Assembly (NCBI GenBank): GCA_016790285.1
Contig: JAEUPJ010000016.1
Coordinates: 62,001 to 126,000, forward strand
Direction of reading: 5' to 3'
Length of the DNA stretch: 64,000 nt
From: Roseateles sp.
GTDB taxonomy: Bacteria; Pseudomonadota; Gammaproteobacteria; Burkholderiales; Burkholderiaceae_C
Shown: one piece after another, positions 26,548-51,351 of the stretch
Layout of the letters: each line of letters opens with the position of its first letter
Numbering within the stretch: the stretch's first letter is position 1
Program-made: the position numbers and the translations under genes
The notes under the pieces: model-generated
The model's database searches: none
Seen by the model: only the letters and a program-made list of their open reading frames with translations
Told to the model about the DNA's origin: nothing

Positions 26548-26576
26548 AGTATACCCTGACGCTCCAATGCGGGCAA
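26548..26576 (-). promoter_or_regulatory. sigma-70 promoter of rplU-rpmA
   Basis: On the minus strand TTGCCC (26576-26571), 17 bp, TATACT (26553-26548): near-consensus boxes at ideal spacing, about 150 bp before the rplU ATG. It begins only 21 bp past the stop of the ABC gene of the exporter operon, with no clear terminator between. Confidence 0.85.
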
Positions 26577-26596
26577 GCCGGCCGTGACGGTGGCCC

Positions 26597-28747
26597 TCAC
26601 GGATGGGCGATCACGAGCAAGGCGCCGGTGCGGTGGCGCACGCAGGCCAGGCACTGGGCCAGGTGCTCGGGGTCCAGGGCCGCGAAGCTTTCGTCCAGCA
26701 CGGTGAGCGGCGCCCGCTGCAGCAACGCCCGCGCCAGGAAGATGCGGCTGCGCTCGCCGTGGGAGAGCTGCCAGCCCGTTTCGCCGATGCGCTGCTGCAG
26801 CCCTGCGGGCATGCGACGCAGCAACTCGCCCAGACCCAGTTCTTCGCACAAGGCCTCGGCCTCTCGCAGCGACGCGGGCGTTGGCGGCCACTGGCTGCCC
26901 ATCAGGAGATTGAAGGCGACGGTGTGCGAGACGATGTGGTTTTCGTGGAACTGCGGTGCCGAGGCCGCGTTCGCCTGCCAGCGCTCGCCCAGCGTCGGTG
27001 CGTCCAGCCCGCCCTGCAGCAAAAGCCCGGACTGTGGGCGGCGCAGCCCGGTGAGCAGTGCCGCCAGCGTCGACTTGCCCCCGCCCGACGCCCCCTGCAG
27101 CAACAGCCGGTCGCCACGATGGATGGCCAGGTCCACGCCCTGCAGGACGGCCGGGCCTGCAGCGTGCGCGAACCGCAGCCCCTGCGCGTCCAGCAGCGGC
27201 GCGCCGTCGTCGGTCGGGCGCATGCCGTACACCGCAGGCACCCGCGACGGGTCGCGCTTTCCCGCGGCATACAGGGCCGACACCTGCTGCCACGCCACCG
27301 CCGCCCGGGCCAGGCTGCCCAGGCCATGCGCCAGGCCTGCCAGTGCCCGCTGGGCCAGCAGCAGGCCGCCCACGCTGATGGCCAGCGCGGGCGCTGACGG
27401 GCCAGCGCCCTCTCGCATGAAGCCGGGCACCAGCACGGCCAGAGACACGGCCAGCCAGCCCGCCGGCAGCCACACCTGCAGCCGCAGGCCGGCGCCGTCC
27501 ATGCCGCGCGACGCGGTCAGGTAGGCTGACAACCCGGCGTCCTCCTGCTGCGTACGGCGCTCTGGCTGCTCCTGCGCCAACCGGGTGCGGTGACCGACCA
27601 TCTGCTCGATCAAGTCGTGGGTGAGCGCCAGGCGCTGGCGCGTCCAGCCAGCCAGTCGCCCGCCGAAGGCCGAGCAGGCCCACGCGACCAGCATCGCCCA
27701 GGCCAGCAGCAGCGCCACGTGGGCGCCACCCGCGGCGCCCATGGACAGCACGCCGGCGGCCACCGTCAGCTCGATGAGAGCCAGCAGCGTCGCCAGCCCA
27801 CCACCGACCGCGAGCGATTCCAGCGCAGAACTCTCGATGACACGCCCGAGCAAGGCGCCCACGCCCTCGCGCCGCACGCGGTCGACATCCATCTGCAAGG
27901 CCCCCACCAGCAAACGCGCCTTGAGCAGCGTGGCCGCGCGACGCGCGAAGCCGGCGTGCAGCGTCATCCCGGCGAGCCGCAAGGGCAGGAGGGTGAACAG
28001 CAGCAGCACCCAGCCCATGAGCCAGCCCGCATCCAGCCGCCCGGCCAGCACGCCCTGCCCGACCATGGCCCAACCGCCCACTTCACCGGCGTAAAAGACC
28101 GCGAACAGCCCCATCATGCCCAGCAGCCGCTGCGGCAGCCGGGCCTGGCGCGCCTGCGCATCCAGCGGTGCCGACGGCGGCAGGCGCAGCTGCCACCAGG
28201 GCGCCAGGCGCGTGTCGGCGAATCGCTCGCGCCGCCAGGCCGCGCTCACCGCCGCGCGGCGACGTGGGGGCACGGCTGCCGTCGCCAGCAGCTCGTCGAG
28301 TTCATGCTGCAGCGGGGCCACCGCCGGCTGGCACAAGGCCGCTGACAAGGCCGCCCGCGGCAGGTGGTGGACGCGGCCATCGGGGCCGAGCAGCGCGACC
28401 CGGCCTCGCCGCCGCCATGTGGGCGCGCCAGCCAGCAACAGCAGCACGCCCGGCGCTCCGCCTGCATCGGTCCAGGGCACGAGGGCGGGCCCCGCCTGGC
28501 GCAGTGAGGCATCGGCATCGGGCACGGCGGTGTAGGCGGGCTCCAGTTCCAGCTGCAGACGGCTTGCCGCCCAGTGAAGCCAGTCCGCCAGCGGGGCCAG
28601 GCCGGCCACCAGGCCCGCCTGCAAGGCCGCAGGCGGCGGGGGCGCCAGCACCTCACCGCCCGGCGAGGCGAGCCCGGCCGCCTGCGCCAGCGCCTCCAAT
28701 GCCTCGCCCAGGCGGGCGAGCGGCCAGGCCAGTTCGTCGGGTGTCAT
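26597..28747 (-). CDS. ABC exporter ATPase/permease (second ABC subunit of the polyglycine-peptide operon)
   Basis: 716 aa. About 200 N-terminal residues without a peptidase motif are followed by a transmembrane domain ([52 protein letters not shown]) and a C-terminal nucleotide-binding domain. That domain has Walker [10 protein letters not shown], a signature variant [15 protein letters not shown] and Walker [13 protein letters not shown]. The non-peptidase ABC with a long N-terminal region beside a C39-ABC and an HlyD protein recalls the NHLM/NHLP-type bacteriocin export set; this is family-level inference. It overlaps the C39-ABC gene by 4 bp. The signature Gly-to-His change (LSGGE to LSHGE) may weaken this ATPase site. 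No terminator is visible before the rplU promoter. Confidence 0.85.
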
Positions 28748-31440
28748 CGCCCGCTCTCCACTTCGGCCAGCCGCCCGTCATGCAGCACCAGCCGGCGCCA
28801 GGCGTCGCCGCCCCAGGCGCCCGACTGCAGGGCTGACTCGGCGTCCAGCAACTGGCGGTAACGCGACGCCTGAGCGGCGAGTACCTGCGGTGGCCCATCT
28901 TCCAGCAACTGGCCGCCCTCGATGACGAGCACGCGCGGAAAGTCGAGCGTGTGGGCGATGTCGTGCGTCACGCACAGCAGCGTGCTGCCTTGCCACCACT
29001 GCCGCGCCTCGCCGAGCAGCGCCTGGCGCTGCGGGCGGTCGAGCCCGCGGAAGGGCTCGTCCAGCAGAACGAGCCGCGGGTCGGCCTGCATCAAGGCGCG
29101 TGCCAACCTGACACGCTGACCTTCACCGCCCGAAAGCAGCCCGCCCCCCTCGCCCAGCACCGTCTGCAACCCCTGCGGCAGGCGCGCGGCAAGCTCGCGC
29201 AGCCGTGCCAGCCGGGTCACGTCGCCGATACGGTCCAGCGCCTCGCCGGGTGTCGCGTAGCGCAGGTTGTCGAGCAGGCTGCGGTTCCAGAGTTGCACCG
29301 CGGGGTCCACCCAGGCCATGTGCCTGCGCATGCCGTCGAGCTCGCGAGCCTGCCCGCCGCTGACCTGCCGGCCGCCGACGTGCAACTCGCCCGCGGCAGG
29401 CCGGTGCCAGCCGAGCAGCAAGCCGACCAGGGTCGACTTGCCCGCACCGGACACCCCCACCACCGCGACATGCTCGCCCGCCTCGATGCGCACATCGAGC
29501 CCGTGCAGGATCTCGTGCCCGCCGGCCAGCACCTGCACGCCGCGGGCCTCGACGGCCCAGGCCCTGCCCTCGCCCACCACCGGCGCATCTGACGCGCCTG
29601 CCGCAGCGCCGGGCGCGGTCAACGGCTCCATCAGGCGCGACAAGGCGTTGCGCTGCGCCACGAGCTGCTCGCCGAGCTGCACGAGCCGGCGCCCCAGGGC
29701 GGGGAGCTTCAGCGTCCAGAAGACGAGCAGCAGGTCGCCGCCGGTCACGCCGCCCTGCAGCTGGAAGTGGCGGGCGATGAACAGCGTGGCCAGGCCGAGC
29801 GCCAATGCGCCCTGCCACGCCTCCACGCCCAGCACGCCACGGATCCACACCTGCAGCGAGCGCGACCACTCCACCAGCAGCGCCTCGTGCTCCCGGCGCA
29901 TCGCCCGCTCGGCCCGGTGCGCGCGCACCGGCACGAGCCCCAGCAGCGCATCCAGGTAGAAGCCGGCCAGCGCCGCGGCGTGCGTGCGCACGCGCAGGTC
30001 GCTCTCGCCAAGCAGCGGCAGCGCCGCCAGCGCAATGGCCAGCGAGACCACCGCGAGCGCCACCGCCCAGCCGCCCGCTGCGGGCGACAGCCACACCAGC
30101 CCCGCCGTGGTCAGCAGCACCTCCAGCAGCCCCTGGCCGAGCCCGAGCAGCGTCGGCGTGAGAGCCCGCACGCCCTGCATGCCGTGGGCGCGGTCGGCCA
30201 TGTCGGACACCGGGCGGCTCTGGAAGTAGCGGTCGTGCAGCCGGGGCAGGCGCTGCAGCAGCGCCGCCCGCAACCGCAGGTCGAGCTGCCGCCCCAGCCG
30301 CAGCACTTCGCACTGCGTGGACGCATCCCACACCGGGCGCAGCAACAGGAAGGCCAGCAAGGCCGCCGCGGCCGCCAGGCGCTGGCCGGTGCCGCCGAGC
30401 TGAGGCGCCAGGTCGAAGAGCCCCCGCAACAGCAGCAATTCCAAGCCGACCGCCAACGTCGTGAAGGCGGCGGCGATGCAGAGCATCCAGGGCATCCAGC
30501 GCGCCGTCGTCGAGTCCTCGCGCAGCAGGCGCCACAACTGACGCCAGGCGGGCTCGGCCGGCGCTTGCAGCACGGCCGCCAGTTCGGGCGGCAGCGTCAC
30601 CGCAGGGGCTTCGCGGCCGGTGATGCGCAGCAGCACCGCACCGCGCAGGCGCAGGCGCGGGGCGTCGCCCTCACCCACCCCGGCCGGCCGGACGGCCCAG
30701 TGAACGGCGGGCACGACCTGCTCCGGCTGCGCCTGCGGCCCCAGGCACCGCTGCAGGCTGGCAACCACGAGGCGTTGCACCGCCGCCCCGGGCGACAGGG
30801 CGCCGGCCTGCACCACCGACTGCGCGAACCGTGTGGACGCGTCCAGCGCGGCCCAGCCCAGCCAGCCGTCGGCTGCGGCCGCCGCGGCCAGGGCACCCTG
30901 CGTCGCAGCGGGCTGCAGACCCAGCGCCTGCAACCGCGCCGCGAGCGCCTGCCGGTTCTCCGCGCCCGCCGCCCAAGCGGCCCAGTCCGCGGCATCGACC
31001 TCCACCTCGTGTCGGTAGAGCTTGCGACGCAGCGCTGCCACGCGCATCCAGCGGCGCCCCACTGACGGGTCCATCACCTGCACCCAGGGGCCGAGCCTGC
31101 GCCAGATGACGACGAAATGCGCGCCGAGGTCGGCGTGCTGCACCACGGCGATGGCCGGCGCGTCGCTCACGCCGGCCAGGGCGACATGGTCCACCGGCAC
31201 GAGCACCTGTTCCGCTGCGAGCCCCAGTTGTTGCGCCACCTGCTCCAGCGTGTCGATGGAGGTGCCGTCCACGCTGGTCTGGCAAGCTTCACGCAGGCGG
31301 CCATAACTGGCCGGCTGGCCGAAGCCGTCGAGCACGCAGGCCAGTGCCGCCGGCCCACAGTCCATGGACGAGGTCTGCACCACCTCGGCCACCCGCCAGC
31401 GGCGGCGCAGCGCCGCGCCCCCGGACACCGCGGCCGTCAC
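28744..31440 (-). CDS. C39 peptidase-containing ABC exporter
   Basis: 898 aa. The N-terminal C39 protease domain has a full catalytic set: Cys28 ([15 protein letters not shown]), His108 (LGAHFVVIW) and Asp124 (VMDPSVG). Such domains cut leader peptides after Gly-Gly or Gly-Ala while the ABC part exports the core. A long spacer (about residues 140-340) precedes the membrane domain and the nucleotide-binding domain with Walker [25 protein letters not shown] and [12 protein letters not shown]. The start is GTG at 31440, overlapping the HlyD stop; the longer frame upstream is antisense-like and lacks family similarity. The likely substrate is the polyglycine peptide in the same operon. Confidence 0.9.
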
Positions 31441-32582
31441 CGCGCCCCCAAGCTGCGCAGCAGCAGCTGCGCGGGCGACACCGCCTCCAGCGCGATCTCG
31501 ACCTGGCCGCTCAGGCCGTGCTGCAGCGGCAGCCCGGTGCGCGTCTGCACGCCGTCCAGCGCGAGCTCGACGCGCAGCCGCTGGTCGCGCACCTCGCCAG
31601 CCACGCGCTCCACGCGGGCGCCGAGGCTGCCGTGCTGCAGCCACGGGAAGCCCTCCAGCCGCAAGACGGCCACCTGGCCCTCGCGCACACGCCCCAGCGC
31701 GGTGCCGGGCGCGAACTCCGCCACCACGCGCAACCTGTCCACCGGCAGCACGGTGGCCAGGGCCTGGCCTTCGCTCACCCAGGCACCGGCCTGCACAGGC
31801 GCCACCTCGGCCAGCACGCCACCCACCGGCGCGCGCAACTGCAAACGCTCGCGCGCCGCCTGCAAACGCTGCACGCGCGTGGCCAGGGCCTGCGCGTCGG
31901 ACGCGAGGGCGGTGAGTCGCCCCTGCACCGTCTCGCGCTGCGCCTGCAGCTGCGCGGCGCGGGCCCGGGTCTCGCGCATCAGCCGCAGGGCTTCGGCGTC
32001 CAGGCCCGCCTGTTGCGAAGCCAGACGGCGCGACTCCGCGCGTGCGCGCAGCAAGTCCATCTCGGCGACCCCGCCGGCGCGCGCTTCGTCCGCCAGGCGC
32101 CGCTCATGCTCACGCGCCACGGCGAGCTGGGACGCCACCTCGGCACGCCGCTCGCGTGCGACCTGCACGGCCGCGTCGCCAGCCTCGGCCGCCTGCCGCC
32201 CGGCGCTGTGCAGGGCCCGCAATTCGGCCTGCAAGGCCTCGCGGGCCTCGGGCACTGCGGCCAGACGCCCGGACTCTTCGCGCAGCGACAGGGCCGCGGC
32301 CTGGTCGTCCAGCTCGAAGAGCACGTCGCCCGCGTTGACGCGTTCGCCCAGGCGACGGCTGGCGCGCACCAGGCGGCCCGCCTGCGCTGCGGTGACGGGA
32401 TGCGCCGCGGCGACGGCTTCGACGCGCGCCGAGCGGGACGCCTCGAACAAGGTCACCTCGCCGCCGAAGAACCAGGCCAGCCACGCCAGCAGCAGCATGC
32501 CGGCGACGGCCCAACCCATCCAGGAGCGCCCCGGGCCATCGGCGTCGAGGGCACGCAGGGTGCGGGAGAACGGGCTGGCCAT
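31437..32582 (-). CDS. HlyD-family periplasmic adaptor (membrane fusion protein)
   Basis: 381 aa. One N-terminal transmembrane helix ([18 protein letters not shown]) is followed by the biotinyl-lipoyl half motif ([20 protein letters not shown]) and long coiled-coil arms rich in Ala, Arg and Glu (about residues 95-230). The second lipoyl half and beta-barrel follow ([35 protein letters not shown]). It should bridge the ABC exporters to the outer-membrane channel encoded just upstream (1 bp gap). Typical of type I secretion and NHLM-like bacteriocin export. Confidence 0.9.
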
Positions 32583-32583
32583 G

Positions 32584-34056
32584 TCAGTGAAGGCTCGCCG
32601 TCTGGACGGGCGCCGCCTGCCAGCCGCCGCCCAGCGCGTGCATGAGGGCCACGGTCGCCTCGCTGCGGGCGGCCTCGGTCTGGATCCACCGCTGCTGCTG
32701 CTGCAGCACGGCGCGGGAAGCCTGCCAGGCGTCGGTGGCAGGCAGCAGGCCCTGGCGCCACTGCCGGTGCGCGCGCGCCTGGGCTTGCAGCGCGAGTTCC
32801 AGACGCTGCGACTGCAGGTGCGCGGCTTCGCCCAAGGTGCGCAGAGCGACAAGCTGGTCGTCGACCTCGCGCAACGCGGCCACGACCCGGGCACGATGGG
32901 CGGCCGTGGCTTCGGCGAGCTGTGCCTGCGCGCCGGCGCGCTCGGCGTCACGGCGTCCGCCATCGAAGACCGGCAGGCTGAGCAGCAGGCCCAGGCCCGA
33001 GCTGCGGGCCGCTGCGTGCAGCCATTGGCCAAGCTCGGCGCTGGCCTGGCCTGCCTGCGCCGTGAGTGCGAGCGCGGGAAACCAGGCGTCGTGCGCCAGG
33101 CCCAGCCGCAGCCGCGCAGCCTGCACGCGCGCCTGCGCGGCTTCGATGTCGGGCCGGCGTTGCAGCAACTGGCTGGGCAGACCGGGTGGCACTGCGGGCA
33201 AGGTGGGCAAGGCGGGCAGGTCGGCTGCCTGAGGTTGCGCGGGGTCGACGGCAGGCGCCGTCTTGGGGGCGTGCGCCACGGCCAGGGACGCGTCGCCGCC
33301 CGCCAACGCCACCAGCGCATGGTCGAGCTCGGCCTCGCGGCGCAGCAGCGCTTGATGCGCGAGCGCGTCGGCCTGCCGTGTGTTCAGCGCCGCCTCCTGC
33401 TCGGCAGGAGGTGCGAGCCCCGCCGCCACGCGGCGCGCAGCCGTCGCGACGAGGGCCTCGTCGGCCCGCAGCAGGCCGTCCATGACGCCGCGCTCCAGAC
33501 GCACCAGTCGCCACGCCAGGTAGGCCTGGGACACATCGGCCTGCAAGGCCAGGCAGGCCTGGCGGTGCAGCGCCTGCTGTGCCCGCAGGTCCTGCTGTGC
33601 AGCCTGCTGCTGACGGGACAGTTGATGGAAGAGATCAGGGTCCCAGCGCAGCGCCAAGCCCGCCTGGAACAGGTTGCCGCGGCTGCCAGCGTCGTTCACC
33701 AACGCGCCGTCGCGACGGCTCGCCGCCACGCTCGCATCGACGCGGGGCGAAGCAAGCGCAGCCTGCCCGCCGAGCACCGCAGCCGCACGCTCCACGCGGG
33801 CGGCGGCCTGGTCCAGTGAGGGGTTGCCCGCCACGGCCCGTGCCAGCCAGGCATCCAGTGTGAGGTCCTCAAAGGCGCGCCAGTCGGCCGTCGCGGACGA
33901 CGCCGTGGTCTCCGAGGCAGCGGCCTCACGGTAGACCTGCGGCACCGGGCTCGGTGCCAGTGGCGCCAGAGGGCTGGGGCCGCAGCCGACACAAGCGCAG
34001 GCAACCACGGCAGCAAGGCCGCATCGCCAGGCACCGCACATCTCGCGCGCTCGCAT
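32584..34056 (-). CDS. TolC-like outer-membrane efflux lipoprotein (NodT/OprM type)
   Basis: 490 aa. The N-terminus has a lipoprotein signal ending VVACACVGC. Two outer-membrane efflux repeats follow, with coiled segments ADWRAFEDLTLDAWLARAVA, LDQAAARVERAAAV and QLLQRRPDIEAAQARVQAAR (the RPDI block is diagnostic of the NodT family). The start is uncertain: a GTG at 34068 touches its ribosome site (GAGGAG), so the ATG at 34056 was preferred. It lies 87 bp after the polyglycine peptide gene, behind two strong hairpins. It completes a tripartite export channel in one operon. Confidence 0.9.
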   Translation of the reverse strand: MRAREMCGAWRCGLAAVVACACVGCGPSPLAPLAPSPVPQVYREAAASETTASSATADWRAFEDLTLDAWLARAVAGNPSLDQAAARVERAAAVLGGQAALASPRVDASVAASRRDGALVNDAGSRGNLFQAGLALRWDPDLFHQLSRQQQAAQQDLRAQQALHRQACLALQADVSQAYLAWRLVRLERGVMDGLLRADEALVATAARRVAAGLAPPAEQEAALNTRQADALAHQALLRREAELDHALVALAGGDASLAVAHAPKTAPAVDPAQPQAADLPALPTLPAVPPGLPSQLLQRRPDIEAAQARVQAARLRLGLAHDAWFPALALTAQAGQASAELGQWLHAAARSSGLGLLLSLPVFDGGRRDAERAGAQAQLAEATAAHRARVVAALREVDDQLVALRTLGEAAHLQSQRLELALQAQARAHRQWRQGLLPATDAWQASRAVLQQQQRWIQTEAARSEATVALMHALGGGWQAAPVQTASLH

Positions 34057-34085
34057 GCTCAGGTCCACTCCTCAAGGGCCGACGA

Positions 34086-34134
34086 CATGCCCCGAAGGGC
34101 ATGCGCCGGTTGAACGCCAGGCTTGACGCCTGGC
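34086..34134 (-). promoter_or_regulatory. two tandem hairpins between the peptide gene and the exporter genes
   Basis: On the minus strand the first hairpin is GCCAGGC-5 nt-GCCTGGC (34134-34116). The second is CATGCCC-TTCG-GGGCATG (34103-34086), a 7-bp stem closed by a very stable UUCG loop. There is no U tract, so they are unlikely to be full terminators. Their position directly after a small peptide gene suits 3'-end protection or partial attenuation, giving more peptide than exporter mRNA. Confidence 0.6.
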
Positions 34135-34143
34135 ACAGCACCG

Positions 34144-34320
<177 letters not shown>

Positions 34321-34336
34321 GACTCGCTCCGTTTCA

Positions 34337-36262
34337 TCAATGCGTGCTGCATGCACGCGCATCAGCCGGCCCCATGCCGGCCGATTCCTCGGGCCGTGGC
34401 CCGTCGTCCTGCAGCTGGATCACATCGGCATCGATGCGCAGCTGCAGTCCCAATGCACGGTGCAGTTCGTCGGGCAGGAAGGGCACTCGGCCCTGCGTCT
34501 CCTCGGCGAGCTGCACATAGAGGTCGATGTCGGCCACCTCGAAGGGCCGCTCCGGCACCGGCCTGCCCAGCAGCCGGTTGATGTCCGCCTGCGCGGCGCA
34601 GCCGGCGCGCACCAGGGCCTGGGCCTGCACGGCATAGCGCTGCAGTGCCGTACACCAATCGTCCCGGCAGCCTTGTTGCGCAGGCGTGGCGGCGCGCCCG
34701 GCCCGGCGCTGCGTGGCGCGCGCCAGCCGGCAGGCCAGCGCCGTGTCTCCAGGCAGGCTGGCCTCGGCCTGCGCGGAAAGACCCACGGCCGGCAGCTGGC
34801 CCGTGCGGCAGCGCTGCGCCTGCGCGTACATGTCGTCGTAGACGGCGACGCGGTCTGCGCGCCAGGCCGCGGTGGCCAGGTGGGTGCCGCTGCGCAGGCG
34901 TTCAACCAGCGGAGACAGCCAGTCCACCAGCCGCTTCACCGCGGCACTCGGCTCCACCGCCAGCCACCGCTGGGCGATGGCCCACAGCTGCTCGTACGTG
35001 TGCATGGCCAGCGGCCAGTGCGAGAAGGCGGCGGCATAGGACTGCAGGCCCAGCATGGCGTAGTCGATCGCCGGCTCGATGTCGGCCACCGCAGCCTGCA
35101 GCTCGGGGTCGAGCTCGGCCGGCAGGCCGTCGCGCGGCGCCTGGCCGTCGATGAGCACGGCGAGGAACTCGTCGATCATCGCCCTGGGGCCGGCGCACAC
35201 ACCGTGGTCGCCGTGCAAGGAGAACGCGCGCTCGGCATAGGCATGCAACTGTGCGGCGTCCATCGGGGTGTCGGGCCTGCGCGTGGGCTCGCCGAACGGG
35301 ATGAACAGCATGTGGTGCATGGTCATGCGCACGCCGTCGGTGACGCGGAACATCGACGACAGCACCGGGTGCAGCCGCCCATCGGGCACGCGCGCCTCGC
35401 GGCGCATGAGCTGGTAGGCAGGCAAAGCGAGCACGGCCGTGGACAGGCGTTCCAGGTGCCCGACCGTCCAGGCAGCGCGCGCCTCGGGGCAGCGCGCGAG
35501 ATACGCCTCACGCACCTTCAGCAGCATCGCCATCATGGGCAGCCAGTGCGCGCGCATGGCCTTGAGCGCGCTGACGTTCATGGGCTTGTCGTCCTGGTAG
35601 CGCGAGCCGGCGTAGATGCAGCTTCGCCAGCGCGTCGCCACGTCCAGCCGCAGGGCGCGCGGGAACACGTTGGCCTCGCCCACCTGGCGCCCTTCGGCGT
35701 CCAGCGCCATGTGGGCCACGCGGAAAATGGGCACGACGAGTTCGAGCCAGCCGGACTCCAGTGGGCGGCCCGTGAGTTCCTGCATGAGGCCTGGCAGCTC
35801 ATGCCAGCTGCGCGGACACTGGCTGCGCGCAGCCGGCAGCGGAGACGGGCGCAAGCCGGCCTCGCCGACACGGCGCTCCTCGTGCAATTGGCCGGCGGCC
35901 ACCGTGTTCTCATCCGCGCGGCGGAGCACGCCGGCGTCAATGAGTTGGGTCAGCAGGTCTCGCACCCGCGGCCAGTCACCCGGCTCGCCCCAGCCGAGTG
36001 CGTCGCCAGCTCGAAAGAGCGACTGTTGCGCCAGCGTCTCGCCAAACGTGAAGAGCTCGGGCTCATCGAAGGAGATCTGCTGGCTGCCGTAATACAGGCG
36101 CAGCTCGGGCACGCCGGTTTCAGGGTCCTGGTCGCGCTGCGTGATCATGCGCTGGCGATGCGGCAATGCCAGCATGTCGCCGGGCTTGAGCAACGGCTCG
36201 GCGGCCACGGCCCGGGACATCGGGCACGGGTGCACAGCAGGCTCAAGCGCGGTGGCAGACAC
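34337..36262 (-). CDS. 641-aa protein of unknown function, first gene of the polyglycine-peptide operon
   Basis: No family recognised. There is no signal peptide or membrane segment, so it is cytoplasmic. Roughly residues 55-117 (LRLYYGSQQISFDEPELF ... LLTQLIDAGVLRRAD) have the strand/helix rhythm of a small winged-helix or PqqD-like module, which in peptide-modifying systems binds leader peptides; this is a guess. The rest is helical and rich in His and Arg (MFRVTDGVRMTMHHMLFIPF, LHGDHGVCAGPRAMIDEF, YDDMYAQAQRCR). I chose the GTG at 36262 because GAGGAG lies 9 nt before it and both sit just downstream of the start point predicted from the sigma-54 promoter; the ATG at 36289 would be at the start point itself. 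Likely a maturation or dedicated handling protein for the peptide encoded 16 bp downstream. Confidence 0.75.
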   Translation of the reverse strand: MSATALEPAVHPCPMSRAVAAEPLLKPGDMLALPHRQRMITQRDQDPETGVPELRLYYGSQQISFDEPELFTFGETLAQQSLFRAGDALGWGEPGDWPRVRDLLTQLIDAGVLRRADENTVAAGQLHEERRVGEAGLRPSPLPAARSQCPRSWHELPGLMQELTGRPLESGWLELVVPIFRVAHMALDAEGRQVGEANVFPRALRLDVATRWRSCIYAGSRYQDDKPMNVSALKAMRAHWLPMMAMLLKVREAYLARCPEARAAWTVGHLERLSTAVLALPAYQLMRREARVPDGRLHPVLSSMFRVTDGVRMTMHHMLFIPFGEPTRRPDTPMDAAQLHAYAERAFSLHGDHGVCAGPRAMIDEFLAVLIDGQAPRDGLPAELDPELQAAVADIEPAIDYAMLGLQSYAAAFSHWPLAMHTYEQLWAIAQRWLAVEPSAAVKRLVDWLSPLVERLRSGTHLATAAWRADRVAVYDDMYAQAQRCRTGQLPAVGLSAQAEASLPGDTALACRLARATQRRAGRAATPAQQGCRDDWCTALQRYAVQAQALVRAGCAAQADINRLLGRPVPERPFEVADIDLYVQLAEETQGRVPFLPDELHRALGLQLRIDADVIQLQDDGPRPEESAGMGPADARACSTH

Positions 36263-36297
36263 GGTCGCGGGCTCCTCGGCGGGATGCATGACCTGGC

Positions 36298-36312
36298 GCA
36301 AACGCTGTGCCA
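36298..36312 (-). promoter_or_regulatory. sigma-54 promoter of the polyglycine-peptide operon
   Basis: TGGCAC-N5-TTGC on the minus strand (TGGCAC at 36312-36307, TTGC at 36301-36298) gives the invariant GG-N10-GC of -24/-12 promoters. The predicted start point (about 36287) places GAGGAG and the GTG start within 25 nt downstream. Confidence 0.75.
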
Positions 36313-36407
36313 GCTGCGCCCCAGCCCTTCAGCATTGCCGCAAGTACCTGTTCTGAAAGGGAAAAGACGCCGAACCCGACAACGCCCATGCGGCTGGCGG
36401 GCCGGGT

Positions 36408-36445
36408 GGTGGGGCAATTGCCCCACCCACTGGGGCACCTGCCCC
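36408..36445. promoter_or_regulatory. tandem palindromes, likely activator sites for the sigma-54 promoter
   Basis: The first site is a perfect 20-bp palindrome, GGTGGGGCAATTGCCCCACC (36408-36427). The second is GGGGCACCTGCCCC (36432-36445). Both share GGGGCA-N2-TGCCCC, and their centres are 21 bp apart, two helical turns. They lie about 130 and 150 bp upstream of the predicted sigma-54 start, where enhancer-binding proteins bind. They do not match NifA (TGT-N10-ACA) or NtrC sites. Confidence 0.65.
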
Positions 36446-36523
36446 GCCCGACCCAAGGCCGGCGCAAGCGAGCGGACAGCGCCGGGTGGTGCCCCTTCGT
36501 CAGGGCCACGCAATCCCCGTTTC

Positions 36524-40616: not shown

Positions 40617-42527
40617 ATGGCCCTGCTCCAGATTGCCGAACCCGGCCACGCGGCCGCGCCCCACCAGCATCGCCTGGCGGTGGGCATCGACCTGGGCACC
40701 ACCAACTCCCTCGTCGCGACGCTGCGCAGCGGTGTGCCGACCGTGCTGGAGGACGCCCAGGGTCGGCGCCTGCTGCCCTCGGTCGTGCACTACGGGGCCG
40801 ATGGTGGCGTCATCGTCGGCCACGAGGCCAGCGAGCGCGCCGCAGCCGACCCGCAGAACACCATCGCCTCGGCCAAGCGCCTGATCGGCCGCGCCCTCAC
40901 CGACCTGCCCGCCGGCACCGTGCCCTACGCCGTGCAGGCCCTGGGCACAGGCGCCGTCGCGGTGCCCACGCGTGCCGGGCTGAAGACGCCGGTGGACGTC
41001 GGCGCGGACGTCCTGCGCCAGCTGCGCGAGCGTGCCGAGGCCTCGCTCGGTGGTGCGCTCGTGGGCGCCGTCATCACGGTGCCGGCGTACTTCGACGATG
41101 CCCAGCGCCAGGCCACCAAGGACGCGGCCCGCCAGGCTGGGCTGAACGTGCTGCGCCTGCTCAACGAACCCACGGCCGCTGCCGTGGCCTATGGGCTGGA
41201 CACGGCCAGCGAAGGCACCTATGTCGTGTACGACCTCGGCGGCGGCACCTTCGACGTGTCGCTGCTTCGCCTCACGCGCGGCGTGTTCGAGGTGCTGGCC
41301 ACCAACGGCGACGCCCTGCTGGGCGGCGACGATTTCGACGAAACGATCGCCAGGTGGTTCCGGGGCCAGCAGGATGCCCTCGCCTGGACCGACGCTGACG
41401 CCGCCGCCCTGCGCGGCGCGGCCCGCCAGGCGAAGGAGGCCCTCACCGATGCCGACGAGGTGACCCTGCGCTGCGTACGAGCCGACGGCGTGGCCCAGGT
41501 CGCGCGCCTCACCCGCGCGCATTTCGAGCAGCTGGTACAGCCGCTGGTGGACCGCACGCTGGCGCCCGTCAAGCGTGCGCTGCGCGACGCCGGCCTGCGC
41601 GCGCCGGAGGTCGACGGCATCGTGCTCGTGGGCGGCGCCACGCGCATGCCCGTCGTGCGGCGGGCCGTCGCGGGCCTGTTCAGCCGCGAGCCCTACACCG
41701 GCATCGACCCCGACCTGGCTGTGGCCCTGGGCGCGGCCATCCAGGCTGACCAGCTCGCCGGCAACCGCGCCATCGGCGACGGTGGGCTGCTGCTGCTGGA
41801 CGTCTGCCCGCTGTCGTTGGGGCTGGAGACCATGGGCGGCCTGGTGGAGAAGATCATCCCGCGCAACAGCACCGTGCCGACGGCGCGGGCCCAGGAGTTC
41901 ACCACCTTCAAGGACGGCCAGACGGCCATGGCCATCCACGTCGTGCAGGGCGAACGCGAGCTGGTGAGCGAATGCCGGTCGCTGGCCCGCTTCACGCTGC
42001 ACGGCATCCCGCCGATGGTGGCGGGTGCCGCCCGCATCCGCGTCACCTTCCAGATCGACGCCGACGGCCTGCTGTCGGTGCACGCCGCGGAGCAGACCAC
42101 CGGTGTGCAGACACAGGTCGAGGTCAAGCCCAGCTACGGCCTGGGCCATGACGCCGTGGCCGAGATGCTGCGCCACGCGATGCTCAACGCCGAGGCCGAC
42201 GCCGCCGCACGCATGCTGCGCGAGGCCGAGGTCGAGGCGCGCCGCCTGCTCGACGCCGTCGAGGCCGCCCTTGCCGAGGATCAGCGCCTGCTGCTGCCAC
42301 GCGAGCAGTTCGCCATCCTGCGCGCCATGCAGGACGTGGCCGATGGGCTGGAGCAATGCGCCGAAGCCGACGGCGGCTCGCTGGCCGAACAGAAGGCCGC
42401 GCGTGAAGCGCTGCGCGCCGCGACCGAAGGCCTGAACCTCGCCACCACCGCCTTCGCAGGCCGGCGCATGGATGCCCGCGTGCGCCAAGCGCTGGCTGGC
42501 CGCCGCATGGACCAGATCTCCGCCTGA
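40617..42527 (+). CDS. hscA: Hsp70-type chaperone HscA
   Basis: 636 aa. Hsp70 homologue that helps release clusters from IscU. The ATPase domain begins [18 protein letters not shown], with [31 protein letters not shown] and [16 protein letters not shown]; the substrate domain follows from about residue 395 ([20 protein letters not shown]). Length matches HscA. Its J-partner HscB is not in this operon, so it must use a copy elsewhere. Confidence 0.96.
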
Positions 42528-42540
42528 GCAGGACCGCCCG

Positions 42541-42930
42541 ATGCACCCCGCCCCTTCCCTCCAGACGCCACACGGCGAGACGCACGCTGCGGCCGTCACC
42601 GAGGTGACCGTGCTGCCCCACACGGCGCTCTGCCCCGACGGCATGCGCTTCGCGGCCCGGCCCGGCCGCAAGCTGGTGGACGAACTGCTGCAGGCCGGCA
42701 TCGCCATCGAGCACGCCTGCGAGAAGGTCGGCGCCTGTGCCACCTGCCACGTGCATGTGCGCAGCGGTGCCGAGTCCCTCAGGCCTGCGGACGACGACGA
42801 GGAAGACCAGCTCGACGACGCCTGGGGCGTCGACGCGCAGTCGCGCCTGGCATGCTGCGTGAAGGTCCGCGGCGCGGCGCTGGTGATCGAGCTGCCGCGC
42901 TACACCAAGAACCACGCCCGCGAGAAATAG
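42541..42930 (+). CDS. fdx: [2Fe-2S] ferredoxin, ISC type
   Basis: 129 aa. Cluster ligands lie in EHACEKVGACATCHVHV (CxxxxxCxxC) and SRLACCVKV. The acidic block DDDEEDQLDD is typical of ISC ferredoxin, which supplies electrons to cluster assembly. The first 25 residues are variable. Last gene of the isc operon; a strong hairpin follows. Confidence 0.93.
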   Translation: MHPAPSLQTPHGETHAAAVTEVTVLPHTALCPDGMRFAARPGRKLVDELLQAGIAIEHACEKVGACATCHVHVRSGAESLRPADDDEEDQLDDAWGVDAQSRLACCVKVRGAALVIELPRYTKNHAREK

Positions 42931-42963
42931 GCCGCCGCCTCACCTCTGGCCCTGTGGCCCGCT

Positions 42964-42997
42964 CAGCCCCTCGCGCCGCACAGCGGCCGAGGGGCTG
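42964..42997 (+). terminator. strong hairpin after the isc operon
   Basis: CAGCCCCTCG (42964-42973) pairs with CGAGGGGCTG (42988-42997), with an inner GCCG/CGGC stem. The following bases (ATGCTTTGTG) are only weakly T-rich. Confidence 0.6.
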
Positions 42998-43023
42998 ATG
43001 CTTTGTGCCGAGCTGCGACCGCA

Positions 43024-43039
43024 TGTCGACAAGCCAACA
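43024..43039. promoter_or_regulatory. NifA upstream activator site for nifV
   Basis: TGT-N10-ACA (TGT 43024-43026, ACA 43037-43039), an exact match to the NifA consensus, about 80 bp upstream of the -24 box at 43117. Confidence 0.75.
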
Positions 43040-43116
43040 ATCGACACACGCCGAACAAGCCTCGGTGGCAGCGAGAAAATCACCGTCGAATCAATGGCTT
43101 AGCGACGCCGCCCGCA

Positions 43117-43131
43117 TGGCACAGCCTTTGC
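43117..43131 (+). promoter_or_regulatory. sigma-54 promoter of nifV
   Basis: TGGCAC (43117-43122), N5, TTGC (43128-43131): full consensus. The predicted start at about 43143 excludes the ATG at 43133 and supports the nifV ATG at 43166. Confidence 0.85.
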
Positions 43132-43165
43132 GATGCATGAGGCAGGACACCCTGCCCGCCACATC

Positions 43166-44320
43166 ATGCCTACCGCATCGTCCCCCTGGCCTTGCACACT
43201 GAACGACACCACGCTGCGCGATGGTGAGCAGACGGCGGGCGTGGCCTTCTCCCGCGAAGAGAAGCTCGCCATCGCGCGTGCGCTGGACGAGGCCGGCGTG
43301 CCGGAGCTGGAGATCGGCATCGCCGCCATGGGCGTGCAGGAGATCGACACGCTCCGCGCCCTCACCCACGCCGGGCTGCGTGCCCGCACGATGGTCTGGG
43401 CGCGCATGTCGCAGTTCGACCTGAAGAGTGCGGCGGCCTGCGGCGCCGACATCGTCCACCTGTCGGTGCCCGTGTCCGACCAGCAGCTCGCCCACAAGCT
43501 CGGCCGCGACCGCGCCTGGGCCCTGGCCATGGTGCAGCGCTGTGTGAGCGATGCGCGCGACGCCGGGCTCGTGCCCAGCGTCGGCCTGGAAGACGCCTCG
43601 CGCGCCGAGCTCACGTTCATTGCCCAGGTGGCGCAGACGGCACAGATGGCGGGCGCGATCCGGTTGCGGTTCGCCGACACCCTCGGGCTGCTCGACCCCT
43701 TCAGCACCCACGAGCGCATCGCCGGGCTGCGGGCCGCCACCGACCTGGACATCGAGATCCATGCCCACAACGACCTCGGCCTGGCCACGGCCAACACGCT
43801 GGCCGCCGTGCGCGCTGGCGCGACGCATGCCAGCACGACGGTGAACGGCCTGGGCGAGCGCGCCGGGAACGCGGCGCTGGAGGAGGTGGTGATGGGCCTG
43901 CGCCACCTGCACGGCATCGAGTGCGGCGTGGACAGCCGGGCGCTGGTGGGCCTGTCGCAGCGCGTGGCGCTCGCCTCGGGCCGGCCGGTGCCGCCGGGCA
44001 AGAGCATCGTCGGCGAAGCGGTGTTCTCGCACGAGTCGGGCATCCACGTCGACGGCCTGCTGAAGGACCCGCGCAACTACCAGCCCTTCGACCCCGCCGA
44101 GCTCGGCCGCAGCCATGCGCTGGTGCTGGGCAAGCACAGCGGCTCGGCCGGCCTGCGCAGGGAGCTGCAGCGCCTGCAGCTCCCGGTGCGCGACGACGTG
44201 ATCGAACCCCTGTTGGCCCGCGTGCGCGAGCACGCCACCCAGACCAAGCGACAGCTCGACGGCGCGGAGCTGCGCCGCCTCATCTCGGAAGTCGCGGCCC
44301 GGCAGCCGCACCTGGCCTGA
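43166..44320 (+). CDS. nifV: homocitrate synthase NifV
   Basis: 384 aa. Condenses acetyl-CoA and 2-oxoglutarate to homocitrate, the organic ligand of FeMo-cofactor. Motifs: [37 protein letters not shown], the [20 protein letters not shown] block and [15 protein letters not shown]. The start at 43166 (MPTASSPW) was fixed by the sigma-54 promoter just upstream. It heads the nifV-nifW-fixABCX operon. Confidence 0.95.
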
Positions 44321-44332
44321 AGGAGACCCACC

Positions 44333-44692
44333 ATGGACCTGACGCAGCAACTCAAGGCACTGTCCAGCGCCAACGAGTTCCTGGAGTTCTTCGGCATCGC
44401 CTACGACGAACGCGTCGTCAACGTGAACCGCCTGCACATCCTCAAGCGCTTCTACCAGTACCTGCACCAGGCCCAAGGCCTGCCTTGCGGGTCTGCCGAG
44501 GGCCTGACGGGGCTGGACGAGGTGGACCTGTTCCGCCGCTACCGGGAGTTGCTGCACCGGGCCTACCAGGACTTCACCACCTCCAACGCCTACCGCGAGA
44601 AGGTGTTCAAGGTCTTCCAGGACGCCGACGGCCGCCAGCGCGTGTCGCTCGACAGCCTCCGGCAGAGCCTGCCCCGCCGAGCGGCCGCCTGA
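44333..44692 (+). CDS. nifW: nitrogenase-stabilising/protective protein NifW
   Basis: 119 aa. The pattern LSSANEFLEFFGIAYDERVV, LHILKRFYQYL and YQDFTTSNAYREKVFKVFQD is typical of NifW, which binds MoFe protein and protects it or aids maturation under oxygen. It sits 12 bp after nifV. Confidence 0.93.
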   Translation: MDLTQQLKALSSANEFLEFFGIAYDERVVNVNRLHILKRFYQYLHQAQGLPCGSAEGLTGLDEVDLFRRYRELLHRAYQDFTTSNAYREKVFKVFQDADGRQRVSLDSLRQSLPRRAAA

Positions 44693-44716
44693 GCCGCCAA
44701 ACCCGAGGAGCCCCTC

Positions 44717-45568
44717 ATGCACATCGTCGTCTGCATCAAGCAGGTCCCGGACTCGGCGCAGATCCGTGTCCACCCGGTGACCAACACCATCATGCGCCAG
44801 GGCGTGCCGGCCATCGTCAACCCCTACGACCTGTTCGCGCTCGAAGAGGCGCTGCGCCTGAAGGACCAGTTCGGCGGCCGCGTGACCGTGCTGTGCATGG
44901 GCCCGCCGCAGGCCGAGGACGCGCTGCGCAAGTGCATCAGCTTCGGCGCGAACGATGCGGTGCTCGTGACCGACCGCGCCTTCGCCGGCGCCGACACGCT
45001 GGCCACCAGCTACGCCCTCACCGCGGCCATCCGCAAGATCAGCGAGGAGCAGGCGGTGGACCTCGTCTTCACCGGCAAACAGACCATCGACGGCGACACC
45101 GCCCAGGTCGGCCCCGGCGTGGCCAAGCGCCTGGGCTGGAACCTGTTGACCTACGTCAGCAAGATCAACGAGGTGGACCTCGACGGCCGCAGCATCACCG
45201 TGGAGCGCCGCGCCGAGGGCGGCGTGCAGCGCCTCAAGACCTCGCTGCCCAGCCTCATCACGATGCTTGAAGGCACGAACGAGATGCGCTTCGCGACCAT
45301 GGACGACATGCTGCGCGCCGCGCGCGTGCCGGTGCGCAAGTGGAACAAGGACGACGCCGGCATCGAGGACATCACCAAGATCGGCCTCAAGGGCAGCCCC
45401 ACCATCGTCAGCAAGGTGTTCGCGCCCAAGGCACGCAAGGAGCGCGCCGAGATGCAGACCGTGGACGACGGCGCGAGCCTCAACGACGTCTGCCTGAACC
45501 TGCTGCAGAAGATTTTCACCACCCATCCGACGCTGGAGCAGGAGACGGTCGACCGTCTCAGCGCCTAA
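44717..45568 (+). CDS. fixA: electron transfer flavoprotein beta subunit FixA
   Basis: 283 aa. ETF beta type: MHIVVCIKQVPDSAQIRV, VNPYDLFALEEALRLKD and the FAD/AMP region FTGKQTIDGDTAQVGPGVAK. With FixB/C/X it forms the bifurcating complex that uses NADH to reduce quinone and ferredoxin for nitrogenase. It follows nifW by 24 bp in the same operon. Confidence 0.96.
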   Translation: MHIVVCIKQVPDSAQIRVHPVTNTIMRQGVPAIVNPYDLFALEEALRLKDQFGGRVTVLCMGPPQAEDALRKCISFGANDAVLVTDRAFAGADTLATSYALTAAIRKISEEQAVDLVFTGKQTIDGDTAQVGPGVAKRLGWNLLTYVSKINEVDLDGRSITVERRAEGGVQRLKTSLPSLITMLEGTNEMRFATMDDMLRAARVPVRKWNKDDAGIEDITKIGLKGSPTIVSKVFAPKARKERAEMQTVDDGASLNDVCLNLLQKIFTTHPTLEQETVDRLSA

Positions 45569-45583
45569 CCAGGAGAAGACGCC

Positions 45584-46708
45584 ATGGCTGAACCCGACAA
45601 GCCCGCAATGGCCGCCGCCGCAGCGGCAGGCGCCGCCAAGACCGCCGGCCGCTCCGGCCGCAGCACCGAGCTGCCCGAGCACCTCAAGGCCTACAAGGGC
45701 GTCTGGGTGTTCATCGAGCATGACCGCGGCCAGGTCCACAGCGTCAGCTGGGAGCTGATGGGTGAAGCCCGCAAGCTCGCCGACAAGCTCGGCGTGGACG
45801 TGAGCGGCGTGCTGCTGGGCGGCCCGAACGACCCGCTGGAGGCCTACGCCAAGGAGGCCTATGCCTACGGCGCCGACCACGCCTACGTCATGCGCGACCC
45901 GGTGCTGCAGGGCTACCGCAACGAGCCCTACACCAAGGGCATGACGGATCTCGTCAACCAGTACCAGCCCGAAATCCTGCTGCTGGGCGCCACGACGATG
46001 GGCCGCGACCTGGCCGGCTCCGTCGCCACCACGCTGGCCACCGGCCTGACGGCCGACTGCACCGAGCTGAACATCGACGGCCGCGCGCTGGCCGCCACGC
46101 GCCCCACGTTCGGCGGCTCGCTGCTGTGCACGATCATGACGCTGGCCTACCGCCCGCAGATGGCCACCATGCGCCCGCGCACCGCCGCCATGCCGCGCCG
46201 CGACGAGACGCGCAGCGGCGACATCATCACGATGGCGCTGGGCCTGGTGGAGACCAGCATCGTCACCAAGCTGCTGGAGTTCATCCCCGACGCCAACCGC
46301 AACACCGTCAACCTGGCCTACGCCGACATCATCGTCACCGCCGGCAAGGGCCTGAAGAATGCCGACAACTGCAAGCTGGTGTGGGACCTCGCCCGCGTAC
46401 TCGGTGCCGAGGTGGGCGCCACCCGCGCGGTGACGCAGGCCGGCTGGCTGGAGGCCGAGCGCCAGGTGGGCCAGACCGGCAAGACGGTGCGGCCCAAGCT
46501 CTACATCGCCGCTGGGGTGTCCGGCGCGATCCAGCACCGCGTGGGCATGGAGGCCAGCGACGTCATCGTCGCCATCAACACCGACCCCAACGCGCCCATC
46601 TTCGACTTCGCGCACCACGGCATCGTCGGCAATGCGATGCAGGTGCTCCCCGCGCTGACACAGGCGTTCCGCACCCACCTGGACAAGCGCATCCGCAAGG
46701 TCGCTTGA
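45584..46708 (+). CDS. fixB: electron transfer flavoprotein alpha subunit FixB
   Basis: 374 aa. ETF alpha: VWVFIEHDRGQVHSVSWEL and the FAD-binding C-terminal domain (LYIAAGVSGAIQHRVGMEAS, IVAINTDPNAPIFDFAHHGI). An Ala-rich N-terminal stretch of about 30 residues is variable. Partner of FixA, 15 bp upstream. Confidence 0.96.
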   Translation: MAEPDKPAMAAAAAAGAAKTAGRSGRSTELPEHLKAYKGVWVFIEHDRGQVHSVSWELMGEARKLADKLGVDVSGVLLGGPNDPLEAYAKEAYAYGADHAYVMRDPVLQGYRNEPYTKGMTDLVNQYQPEILLLGATTMGRDLAGSVATTLATGLTADCTELNIDGRALAATRPTFGGSLLCTIMTLAYRPQMATMRPRTAAMPRRDETRSGDIITMALGLVETSIVTKLLEFIPDANRNTVNLAYADIIVTAGKGLKNADNCKLVWDLARVLGAEVGATRAVTQAGWLEAERQVGQTGKTVRPKLYIAAGVSGAIQHRVGMEASDVIVAINTDPNAPIFDFAHHGIVGNAMQVLPALTQAFRTHLDKRIRKVA

Positions 46709-46719
46709 GGAGACCCGAG

Positions 46720-48027: not shown

Positions 48028-48323
48028 GCACCGTCACCGTCAACGTGGAAGAGAAGCTCTTCCAGAACCGCTACAAGGTCGACCCTGGCCGGCCGCACAT
48101 CCGCATCCTGGATGCCGACGTCTGCACCAACGCCTGCCAGGGCCAGCAGTGCACCTTCATCTGCCCGGCCGCCTGCTACAAGGCCGAGGGCAATGGCCGC
48201 GTGACGCTGATCACCGACGGCTGCCTGGAGTGCGGGAGTTGCCGGGTCATCTGCACGGAGCACACCAACGTCGCCTGGGAGTACCCCCGCGGCGGGCACG
48301 GCATCCTGTTCAAGTTCGGGTGA
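48024..48323 (+). CDS. fixX: ferredoxin-like protein FixX
   Basis: 99 aa. Two Cys groups, VCTNACQGQQCTFICPAACY and GCLECGSCRVICTEHTN, fit the FixX/ETF-QO ferredoxin domain that binds a [4Fe-4S] cluster and docks to FixC. Start overlaps fixC stop. Confidence 0.95.
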   Translation: MSTVTVNVEEKLFQNRYKVDPGRPHIRILDADVCTNACQGQQCTFICPAACYKAEGNGRVTLITDGCLECGSCRVICTEHTNVAWEYPRGGHGILFKFG

Positions 48324-48334
48324 GGCAGGTCGTC

Positions 48335-48847: not shown

Positions 48848-48852
48848 TGCAA

Positions 48853-48872
48853 AGAGCCGCTGAAACGGCTCT
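48853..48872 (+). terminator. hairpin after the Rrf2 gene
   Basis: AGAGCCG-6 nt-CGGCTCT, directly after the stop codon, without a T tract; possible weak terminator before nifA. Confidence 0.4.
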
Positions 48873-49026
48873 GGCTTGGCTCCGGATCGGCGGTCGAGGC
48901 TCGCCCCGCACCGGGAGCGCGCGCGCATTCAGGCAGGCGGGCTTCTTGCATGCATCGCTGGTGTCAGCGGGCACGCCCCGGAATGGCGCGCCCCGACCTT
49001 GCACTGACACCGCGAGGAGGTGAACC

Positions 49027-50784: not shown

Positions 50785-50816
50785 CGCCGCGACTGGCCGC
50801 GCCACAAGGGCCCGAC

Positions 50817-51239: not shown

Positions 51240-51274
51240 GGGGTGCTCCGAAAGTGGCCGATGCCCACACGCGT

Positions 51275-51289
51275 GCAAGCCCCGTGCCG
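51275..51289 (-). promoter_or_regulatory. sigma-54 promoter of the pseudo-receiver gene
   Basis: CGGCAC-N5-TTGC on the minus strand with the invariant GG-N10-GC; predicted start about 24 nt before the ATG at 51239. Confidence 0.65.
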
Positions 51290-51351
51290 CAGCGCCCTGC
51301 CCTGCAAGCGCGCGGTCGCCAGGCCCGCTGCAGCGTCGCGGATGTTGGGTT

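What the first reader, a model, noticed from the sequence alone, without database searches (positions are those of the whole stretch)
26597..36312. Undescribed polyglycine-peptide export operon
One minus-strand operon carries an unknown 641-aa cytoplasmic protein, a 58-aa peptide with 30 glycines in a row, a TolC-like lipoprotein, an HlyD adaptor, a C39 peptidase/ABC exporter with full catalytic Cys-His-Asp, and a second ABC protein. The exporter set resembles NHLM-type bacteriocin export (C39-ABC, second ABC, HlyD), but the cargo is neither a nitrile-hydratase-leader nor a Nif11 peptide. A GAGG in the peptide N-terminus could be the C39 cut site. I know of no described family with such a product; a surface polymer, adhesion material or antimicrobial are all open.
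Basis: partly seen in the sequence, partly recalled or inferred. Interest (0 to 1): 0.92.

Follow-up and report, generated by a model that had tools for sequence, protein, structure and literature searches.

The report
Peptide export operon with new leader
A bacterium carries a compact set of genes that appears to mature and export a small peptide; the peptide's start signal and its exporter recur in other, partly distant bacteria, while the striking run of 30 glycines was seen only in this copy.

Summary
The operon exists as described: 641-aa unknown protein, 58-aa peptide with 30 consecutive Gly, NodT-type outer-membrane factor, HlyD, C39-ABC with intact C/H/D, second ABC. Polyglycine does not define it: a Burkholderiales MAG (L020) has the same parts with two tandem peptides beginning MKVKTNLRAGAG and no Gly tract. 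The exporter type recurs in five further genomes; small ORFs with N-[ILV]-[KR]-[AVL]-G lie in 6 of 7 exporter loci (the seventh is cut by a contig end), against 1 unrelated hit elsewhere and 0 in two controls (pattern widened post hoc). In a Piscinibacter plasmid the exporter sits in a RiPP cluster. The operon is a ~9.9-kb insert between rplU and ispB, absent there in 19 of 19 other congeners examined, with a -24/-12 element shared exactly with L020 and two tandem dyads. Best reading: RiPP-like peptide maturation and export with a very short leader ending NLRAG, C39 cutting after AG, the 641-aa family being a candidate maturation or escort protein. NHLM models are missed widely. Chemistry and product function are untested.

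The parts
34337..36262 (-). 641-aa undescribed protein (candidate peptide maturation/escort factor); core about residues 175-375 shared with a wider undescribed family
34144..34320 (-). 58-aa precursor peptide
34291..34308 (-). leader motif TNLRAG (peptide residues 5-10); proposed C39 cut after G10 (inferred)
34183..34272 (-). 30-Gly tract (imperfect GGY repeat)
32584..34056 (-). NodT-type outer-membrane factor, probable lipoprotein
31437..32582 (-). HlyD/EmrA-type periplasmic adaptor
28744..31440 (-). C39 peptidase - linker - ABC exporter (C28, H108, D124)
26597..28747 (-). second ABC protein with degenerate C39-like N-terminus, ending directly after the H-loop
36298..36312 (-). sigma-54-type -24/-12 element TGGCACAGCGTTTGC, identical 15-mer upstream of the homologue in L020
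36411..36424 (.). dyad GGGGCA-N2-TGCCCC, proposed activator site 1
36432..36445 (.). dyad GGGGCA-N2-TGCCCC, proposed activator site 2, 21 bp centre to centre from site 1
26562..36497 (.). approximate limits of the insert between rplU and ispB

Best explanation
A transferred, probably sigma-54-driven RiPP-like operon. Shown: the gene set; leader and exporter conservation; intact C39 residues; insertion at a site that is empty in congeners; a relative of the exporter inside a RiPP cluster. Inferred: the 58-aa precursor is recognised by its short leader (MKxxTNLRAG), acted on or escorted by the 641-aa protein, cleaved by C39 after AG, and its 48-aa remainder (AGGRCS-G30-ASGGGHNSPDTP) is driven out by the C39-ABC/second-ABC pair through the HlyD adaptor and the NodT-type channel. 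The Gly tract is a lineage-specific expansion of the core. The confidence is for this whole chain; that the peptide is cargo of this exporter type I put at about 0.85, that the 641-aa protein acts on the peptide at about 0.55.
For: L020 holds the 641-aa homologue (48%), two tandem peptides with identical first 13 residues and Shine-Dalgarno sites, an OMF (37%), and divergent HlyD (45%), C39-ABC (52%), second ABC (49%). The string TNLRAG, taken from the Burkholderiales peptides, ranks the in-cluster peptide first among 175, 272 and 311 small ORFs in L051, L052, L053, by 21 vs 20, 25 vs 20 and 25 vs 18 points. TN[ILV][KR][AV]G in small ORFs: 6 hits in 336 kb of 16 sources, all in exporter clusters; reversed control 0. 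Piscinibacter plasmid: exporter of this type with YcaO, TfuA, MNIO, ThiF, ThiS and a 57-aa peptide ...AKVNVKLG-PIPFIAGLSNKARQKPW, whose SNK recalls the core of the characterised std RiPP (PMC13174530 abstract and section 5). C39 triad 7 of 7. Shared promoter 15-mer. Insert filled by the operon.
Against: G191 has a full-length 641-aa homologue but no exporter in the 19.5-kb locus, and is not among the 7 hits of the family exporter search (genomes without a match are not listed there, so its inclusion is presumed); only a 16-aa ORF MEVSVKTRAGRPICRI overlaps its end (about 0.008 such ORFs expected per 300 nt of one strand, post hoc), and the leader HMMs do not report it. No 641-aa homologue is in the loci of the other five exporter clusters (one 28-aa match at E 0.007 in L051), so it is not a general part. 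Its fold is unknown: AlphaFold pLDDT 41 whole, 44 for the N-terminus. If the cut is after AG, the leader lacks Leu-12/Glu-8/Leu-7 and Gly-2 of canonical C39 substrates. The leader HMM and the TNLRAG ranking do not find the Piscinibacter peptide; it fits only a pattern widened after seeing it.
Confidence: 0.58

Rival explanations
1. An unmodified secreted peptide (pheromone or bacteriocin): leader cut and export as above, while the 641-aa protein is immunity, regulation or otherwise unrelated to peptide chemistry.
For: If cut after AG/VG, the L051 and L052 products would be 16 and 15 aa (NALGDFWTKLKNLAPS, GFWEDLKALYPSFSK), signal-peptide-like in size; no known peptide-modifying enzyme among the L051 and L053 neighbours scanned.
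Against: The 641-aa gene comes first and lies 16 nt from (window) or overlaps (L020) the peptide gene; invariant Cys, Glu, Arg, Asn in 8 aligned relatives suggest an active or binding site; one exporter relative is in a RiPP cluster.
Confidence: 0.22
2. Microcin-B17-like azole peptide: the Gly-rich core with Cys15-Ser16 is heterocyclised by enzymes elsewhere in the genome.
For: Gly-rich core after a leader with adjacent Cys-Ser; a YcaO lies beside the related exporter in Piscinibacter.
Against: No YcaO or dehydrogenase match among the operon proteins; only one Cys; L020 cores lack Gly tracts. The rest of the genome was not searched for YcaO.
Confidence: 0.06
3. A polyglycine surface or adhesion material.
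For: 30 consecutive Gly; export route to the outside.
Against: The tract is absent in L020 peptides with the same leader and machinery; a GGY repeat is slippage-prone (established knowledge).
Confidence: 0.07
4. The 58-aa ORF is not a gene but a GC-rich repeat in an intergenic region.
For: Simple-repeat coding sequence; no expression data.
Against: Leader identical at 10 of 13 positions to two tandem L020 ORFs at the same operon position, with ribosome-binding sites.
Confidence: 0.03

Closest known systems
NHLP/Nif11 (NHLM) bacteriocin export, TIGR03794/03796/03797 (Haft 2010, PMC2887384, passages read)
   Same: Three-gene transporter: ABC with C39, ABC without active C39, HlyD-like adaptor
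   Different: Scores 36 vs 156 (HlyD), 170 vs 853 (C39-ABC), 74 vs 709 (second ABC) bits; leader about 10 aa without ELSDEELxxVAGG; NodT-type OMF and 641-aa protein added
Peptidase-containing ABC transporters (PCAT/AMS; LahT, PMC6363468, passages read)
   Same: C39 with C/H/D fused to an exporter; hydrophobic residue at -4 and Gly at -1 if the cut is after AG
   Different: Ala, Val or Leu instead of Gly at -2; no Leu-12/Glu-8/Leu-7; very short leader in the window and L020
std-type MNIO/YcaO-TfuA/carbamoyltransferase RiPP cluster (PMC13174530, abstract and one section read)
   Same: A Piscinibacter plasmid couples such enzymes to a member of this exporter family
   Different: None of those enzymes among the six window proteins
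Microcin B17 (recalled)
   Same: Gly-rich core with Cys/Ser
   Different: No azole synthetase in the operon; different exporter

Membership tests
NHLM bacteriocin export | TIGR03796/03797/03794 above curated cut-offs | tested here: not met
   C39-ABC 170 vs 853; second ABC 74 vs 709; HlyD 36 vs 156 bits; L020: 190 vs 853, 88 vs 709, HlyD no family at 1e-20
NHLM bacteriocin export | NHLP or Nif11-type leader of about 70-87 aa ending ELSDEELxxVAGG | tested here: not met
   peptides read directly; no NCBIfam hit for window or L020 peptides
NHLM bacteriocin export | one ABC with and one without an active peptidase domain, plus HlyD | tested here: met
PCAT/AMS exporter | C39 domain with catalytic Cys-His-Asp fused to ABC | tested here: met
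   PF03412 68 bits vs 22; residues invariant in 7 of 7
PCAT/AMS exporter | substrate with double-Gly leader (GG/GA/GS, Leu-12, Glu-8, Leu-7) | tested here: not met
   read on the peptides with the cut placed after TNLRAG; the true cut is unknown
RiPP biosynthesis | known modifying enzyme in the operon | tested here: not met
   no such Pfam/NCBIfam match
RiPP biosynthesis | RiPP recognition element in the 641-aa N-terminus | tested here: inconclusive
   predicted strands then helices, but pLDDT 44, and no HMM hit
RiPP biosynthesis | modified product | not testable with these tools
   needs mass spectrometry
Microcin B17-type TOMM | YcaO cyclodehydratase and dehydrogenase beside the precursor | tested here: not met
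   six operon proteins

The most novel reading that the evidence does not exclude
The 641-aa proteins are a new class of RiPP-modifying enzyme, built on an undescribed domain with invariant Glu, Arg, Asn and two Cys, acting on precursors with a minimal leader (MKxxTNLRAG); and the exporter with its [TV]N[ILV][KR][AVL]G leaders is an unrecognised peptide-export family across Pseudomonadota, used with at least three different gene sets: the 641-aa protein, a YcaO/MNIO set, and clusters with SPFH and DUF697 proteins (one with a MamK-like actin) that suggest an organelle.
Probability: 0.35. Interest if true: 0.88.

Novelty: new variant of a known kind. Interest (0 to 1): 0.72.

Why it matters
If right, it gives a leader signal by which substrates of an unrecognised C39 exporter family can be found, although they lack the double-glycine leader normally looked for, and it points to an undescribed protein family as a candidate peptide-maturation enzyme. 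The same exporter type serves a YcaO/MNIO cluster in Piscinibacter and clusters with SPFH and actin-like proteins elsewhere, so one signal could assign cargo in several orphan systems.

Tried and rejected
Structure of the 641-aa protein: AlphaFold with two sequences gave pLDDT 41 and 44 for 103 N-terminal residues; no fold search was run on such models. PDB sequence searches gave nothing below E 0.2. Viral contigs: 20 pattern hits, no relative. L002 (G029), a 3e-4 hit to the 641-aa protein with a stop inside, lies over ORFs that read as IspH and a CBS-domain protein (names recalled) and was dropped as spurious. Plasmids: one partial core-domain match, Burkholderia arboris, E 3e-8, not followed. 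NHLM membership rejected on scores. A NifA-type site TGT-N10-ACA was looked for upstream of the operon and not found. Defence-system models hit only ABC ATPase regions. Literature: leader strings searched in 5.39 million open papers gave one unrelated cholesterol paper (listing only) and none; the searches (listings, best 3-15 shown each) showed no paper that I recognised as describing this system; one search listed papers on the Piscinibacter species only. PMC12452194 was searched for six terms and held none. HetC paper PMC10986499: passages only.
Full report
OBSERVATION. The six-gene minus-strand operon is as described. The first gene is best read from GTG 36262 (641 aa): this start lines up with the GTG start of the L020 homologue and lies 36 nt below a TGGCAC-N5-TTGC element. 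The peptide has 30 consecutive Gly (residues 17-46), coded by 16 GGT and 14 GGC. Gaps between genes are 16, 87, 1, -4, -4 nt.

FAMILY SEARCHES. The 641-aa protein (scanned as 650 aa) and the peptide match nothing in Pfam or NCBIfam at E 0.1 or in PHROGs at 0.01, and the protein nothing in PADLOC at 0.001; homologues P0007 and P0008 match no Pfam family at E 10 and P0008 and the L020 peptides no NCBIfam family at E 10. The exporter proteins match OEP/NodT, HlyD, Peptidase_C39 and ABC_tran. NHLM models are far below cut-off: HlyD 36 vs 156, C39-ABC 170 vs 853, second ABC 74 vs 709 bits.

RELATIVES OF THE 641-AA PROTEIN. Counts at E 1e-3 include the query's own genome: 2 of 100 relatives (self and one spurious, G029), 9 of 399 in the family (self, G191 full length at 46%, six partial matches, and G029 again), 1 of 300 in the order (self), 2 of 299 in the phylum (self and G749, core only), 1 of 60 relatives of the L020 genome (L020's own), 1 of 1 in the genus of G191 (itself). 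In the GTDB contig collection 62 stretches matched a pattern and 1 was a relative (L020, 48%). So three full-length members were found. A core of about 200 residues is shared with an undescribed family of about 360-480 aa (starts uncertain); in 8 aligned sequences E183, R201, Q202, G204, E205, N207, P210, C224, R230, N238, R260, A352, C365, F375 and G382 (650-aa numbering) are invariant.

L020. This Burkholderiales MAG contig has the 641-aa homologue, then two tandem peptides, MKVKTNLRAGAGQKRSSSTDSTSLDASGKVVAPPPVSRCLGI and MKVKTNLRAGAGQKRKSSGPESVETVSPPPVPVSRCLGI, each after AGGAG, then an OMF (37%), with HlyD (45%), C39-ABC (52%) and second ABC (49%) divergent. The leader agrees with the window peptide at 10 of 13 positions; the cores do not agree and have no Gly tract. 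G191 has the homologue, no exporter in the 19.5-kb locus, and a 16-aa ORF MEVSVKTRAGRPICRI overlapping the gene's end; ORFs of the form MxxxxxxRAG/KAG are expected 0.008 times per 300 nt of one strand, so this is suggestive only.

THE EXPORTER FAMILY. C39 plus the following linker was the query. Family: 7 of 399 genomes at 1e-10, of which 2 (window, G399) cover the linker. Phylum: 7 of 299 at 1e-12, of which 5 do (window, G821, G892, G812, G862). Class of G812: 1 of 48 at 1e-25, itself. With L020 this makes 7 exporter loci. C28, H108 and D124 are invariant in 7 of 7. The second ABC ends directly after its H-loop (IAHP in 5, ITHP in L052, VAHR in G399) in 7 of 7; its N-terminus aligns with the C39 domain (hhalign probability 73%, 79 columns, pairwise E 3e-5), so I read it as a degenerate C39-like domain. 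No 641-aa homologue lies in the loci of the other five.

THE LEADER. L051, L052 and L053 (G892, G812, G862) each have, among the exporter genes on the same strand, a 50-58-aa ORF with RTNIKAG or RTNIKVG. Scored by BLOSUM62 against the Burkholderiales string TNLRAG, these ORFs rank first of 175, 272 and 311 small ORFs, by 21 vs 20, 25 vs 20 and 25 vs 18; with KTNLRAGAG by 21 vs 18, 24 vs 17 and 25 vs 18. In L050, L028, L029 and L010 the best ORFs were unrelated, and the plasmid peptide in L028 was not among the best four. TN[ILV][KR][AV]G gives 6 small ORFs in 336 kb of 16 sources, all in exporter clusters, and 0 in the reversed sequences. A leader HMM finds the cluster peptide as best hit in G892, G862 and G812 (1.4e-5 to 8.6e-5; any next hit 1.5 or worse), partly circular since they are in the HMM, and nothing convincing in G821, G399 or G191. 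The Piscinibacter plasmid peptide (G399) carries VNVKLG instead. With the pattern widened to N[ILV][KR][AVL]G after seeing it, 9 rows appear in 349 kb of 17 sources: 7 distinct cluster peptides, a duplicate row of the plasmid peptide (L028 and L096 overlap) and one unrelated antisense ORF in L010; reversed and complemented controls gave 0 and 0. Thus 6 of 7 exporter loci have such a peptide; L050 (G821) ends with its contig 189 nt above the HlyD start.

LINK TO RiPPs. The G399 contig has 142,941 bp, the length of NZ_CP136338.1, plasmid unnamed2 of Piscinibacter gummiphilus SBD 7-3, which a plasmid search returned at the same coordinates. G399 is in the family of the window genome, so the window genome is presumably a Burkholderiales member (inference). 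Around HlyD (read across the record start), C39-ABC and second ABC lie MoeB (ThiF-rhodanese), a ThiS-family protein, an MNIO (PF05114), TfuA, a carbamoyltransferase-YcaO fusion, GNAT, DUF6445 and a 57-aa peptide ending SNKARQKPW. The std RiPP cluster has YcaO-TfuA, a carbamoyltransferase and an MNIO acting on an SNKEWQE core (PMC13174530, abstract and section 5). I take this as good evidence that this exporter type serves RiPPs; that it exports that peptide is untested.

PROMOTER AND INSERTION. TGGCACAGCGTTTGC stands at 36298-36312 and, identical, above the L020 homologue, within a 17-nt identical block TGGCACAGCGTTTGCGC in otherwise diverged DNA. With one mismatch allowed such elements are no more frequent than chance (9 seen, 7.5 expected in the window; 3 seen, 3.1 expected in L020), so identity and position carry the argument; none was evident upstream of the G191 homologue. 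Two GGGGCA-N2-TGCCCC dyads, the only two in 64 kb (0.03 expected), lie 21 bp apart, 99-133 nt upstream of the element; L020 has only imperfect counterparts by eye. From rplU start to the first matched ispB residue (1, 3 or 8) there are 269-326 bp in 19 of 19 other same-genus genomes; of 30 loci returned (40 genomes searched), ispB was beside rplU in 28, the misses being the window genome and L085. Against four empty sites the window departs at about 26556-26563 and 36492-36519, so the insert holds the six genes, the element and the dyads; no transposase is among the six.

MECHANISM. Shown: gene set, leader and exporter conservation, intact C39 residues, insertion, promoter match. Inferred: recognition by the leader, cut after AG, role of the 641-aa protein, transport through both membranes. 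In L051-L053 the HlyD-like protein is short (171-215 aa), so export there may stop in the periplasm.

NOVELTY. Leader strings were not found in the open-access library, and none of the libraries scanned has a model for the 641-aa protein. The transporter principle is known; the leader, the accessory protein and the combination are new as far as these searches reach. Hence a new variant of a known kind, with a real chance of a new enzyme class.

Noticed in passing
window 42472-57366: The genome looks like a diazotroph: nifA (657 vs cut-off 529 bits), nifB (692 vs 344) and nifV (527 vs 463) lie in the window; nifV has a -24/-12 element (43117-43131) and a TGT-N10-ACA site (43024-43039) upstream (such sites are not above chance in number).
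   Followed up: partly
L096 1511-13301 and L094 275-547 (NZ_CP136338.1): std-like RiPP cluster on a Piscinibacter plasmid: YcaO fused to a carbamoyltransferase, TfuA, MNIO, MoeB, ThiS, with a 57-aa peptide ending SNKARQKPW.
   Followed up: partly
L051 562-9927, L052 6083-13709, L053 10342-18811: Exporter clusters with SPFH/Band_7 and DUF697 proteins (Pfam-tested in L053, read by eye in L051 and L052), a periplasmic-binding/TSP3/OmpA protein (L051, L053) and, in L051, an actin-like protein (PF06723) that reads like MamK (recalled).
   Followed up: partly
L011 9232-10623, L013 9041-10489, L019 8768-9859: Undescribed family of about 360-480 aa sharing the core of the 641-aa protein; in L011 and L013 followed by a gene that resembles siderophore-type acetyltransferases (recalled, not tested).
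   Followed up: partly
window 26597-28747 and homologues: The second ABC protein stops directly after the switch histidine of its ATPase in 7 of 7 clusters.
   Followed up: partly
L020 11824-12203: Tandem duplicated precursors with near-identical leader and C-terminal SRCLGI but diverged middle.
   Followed up: no
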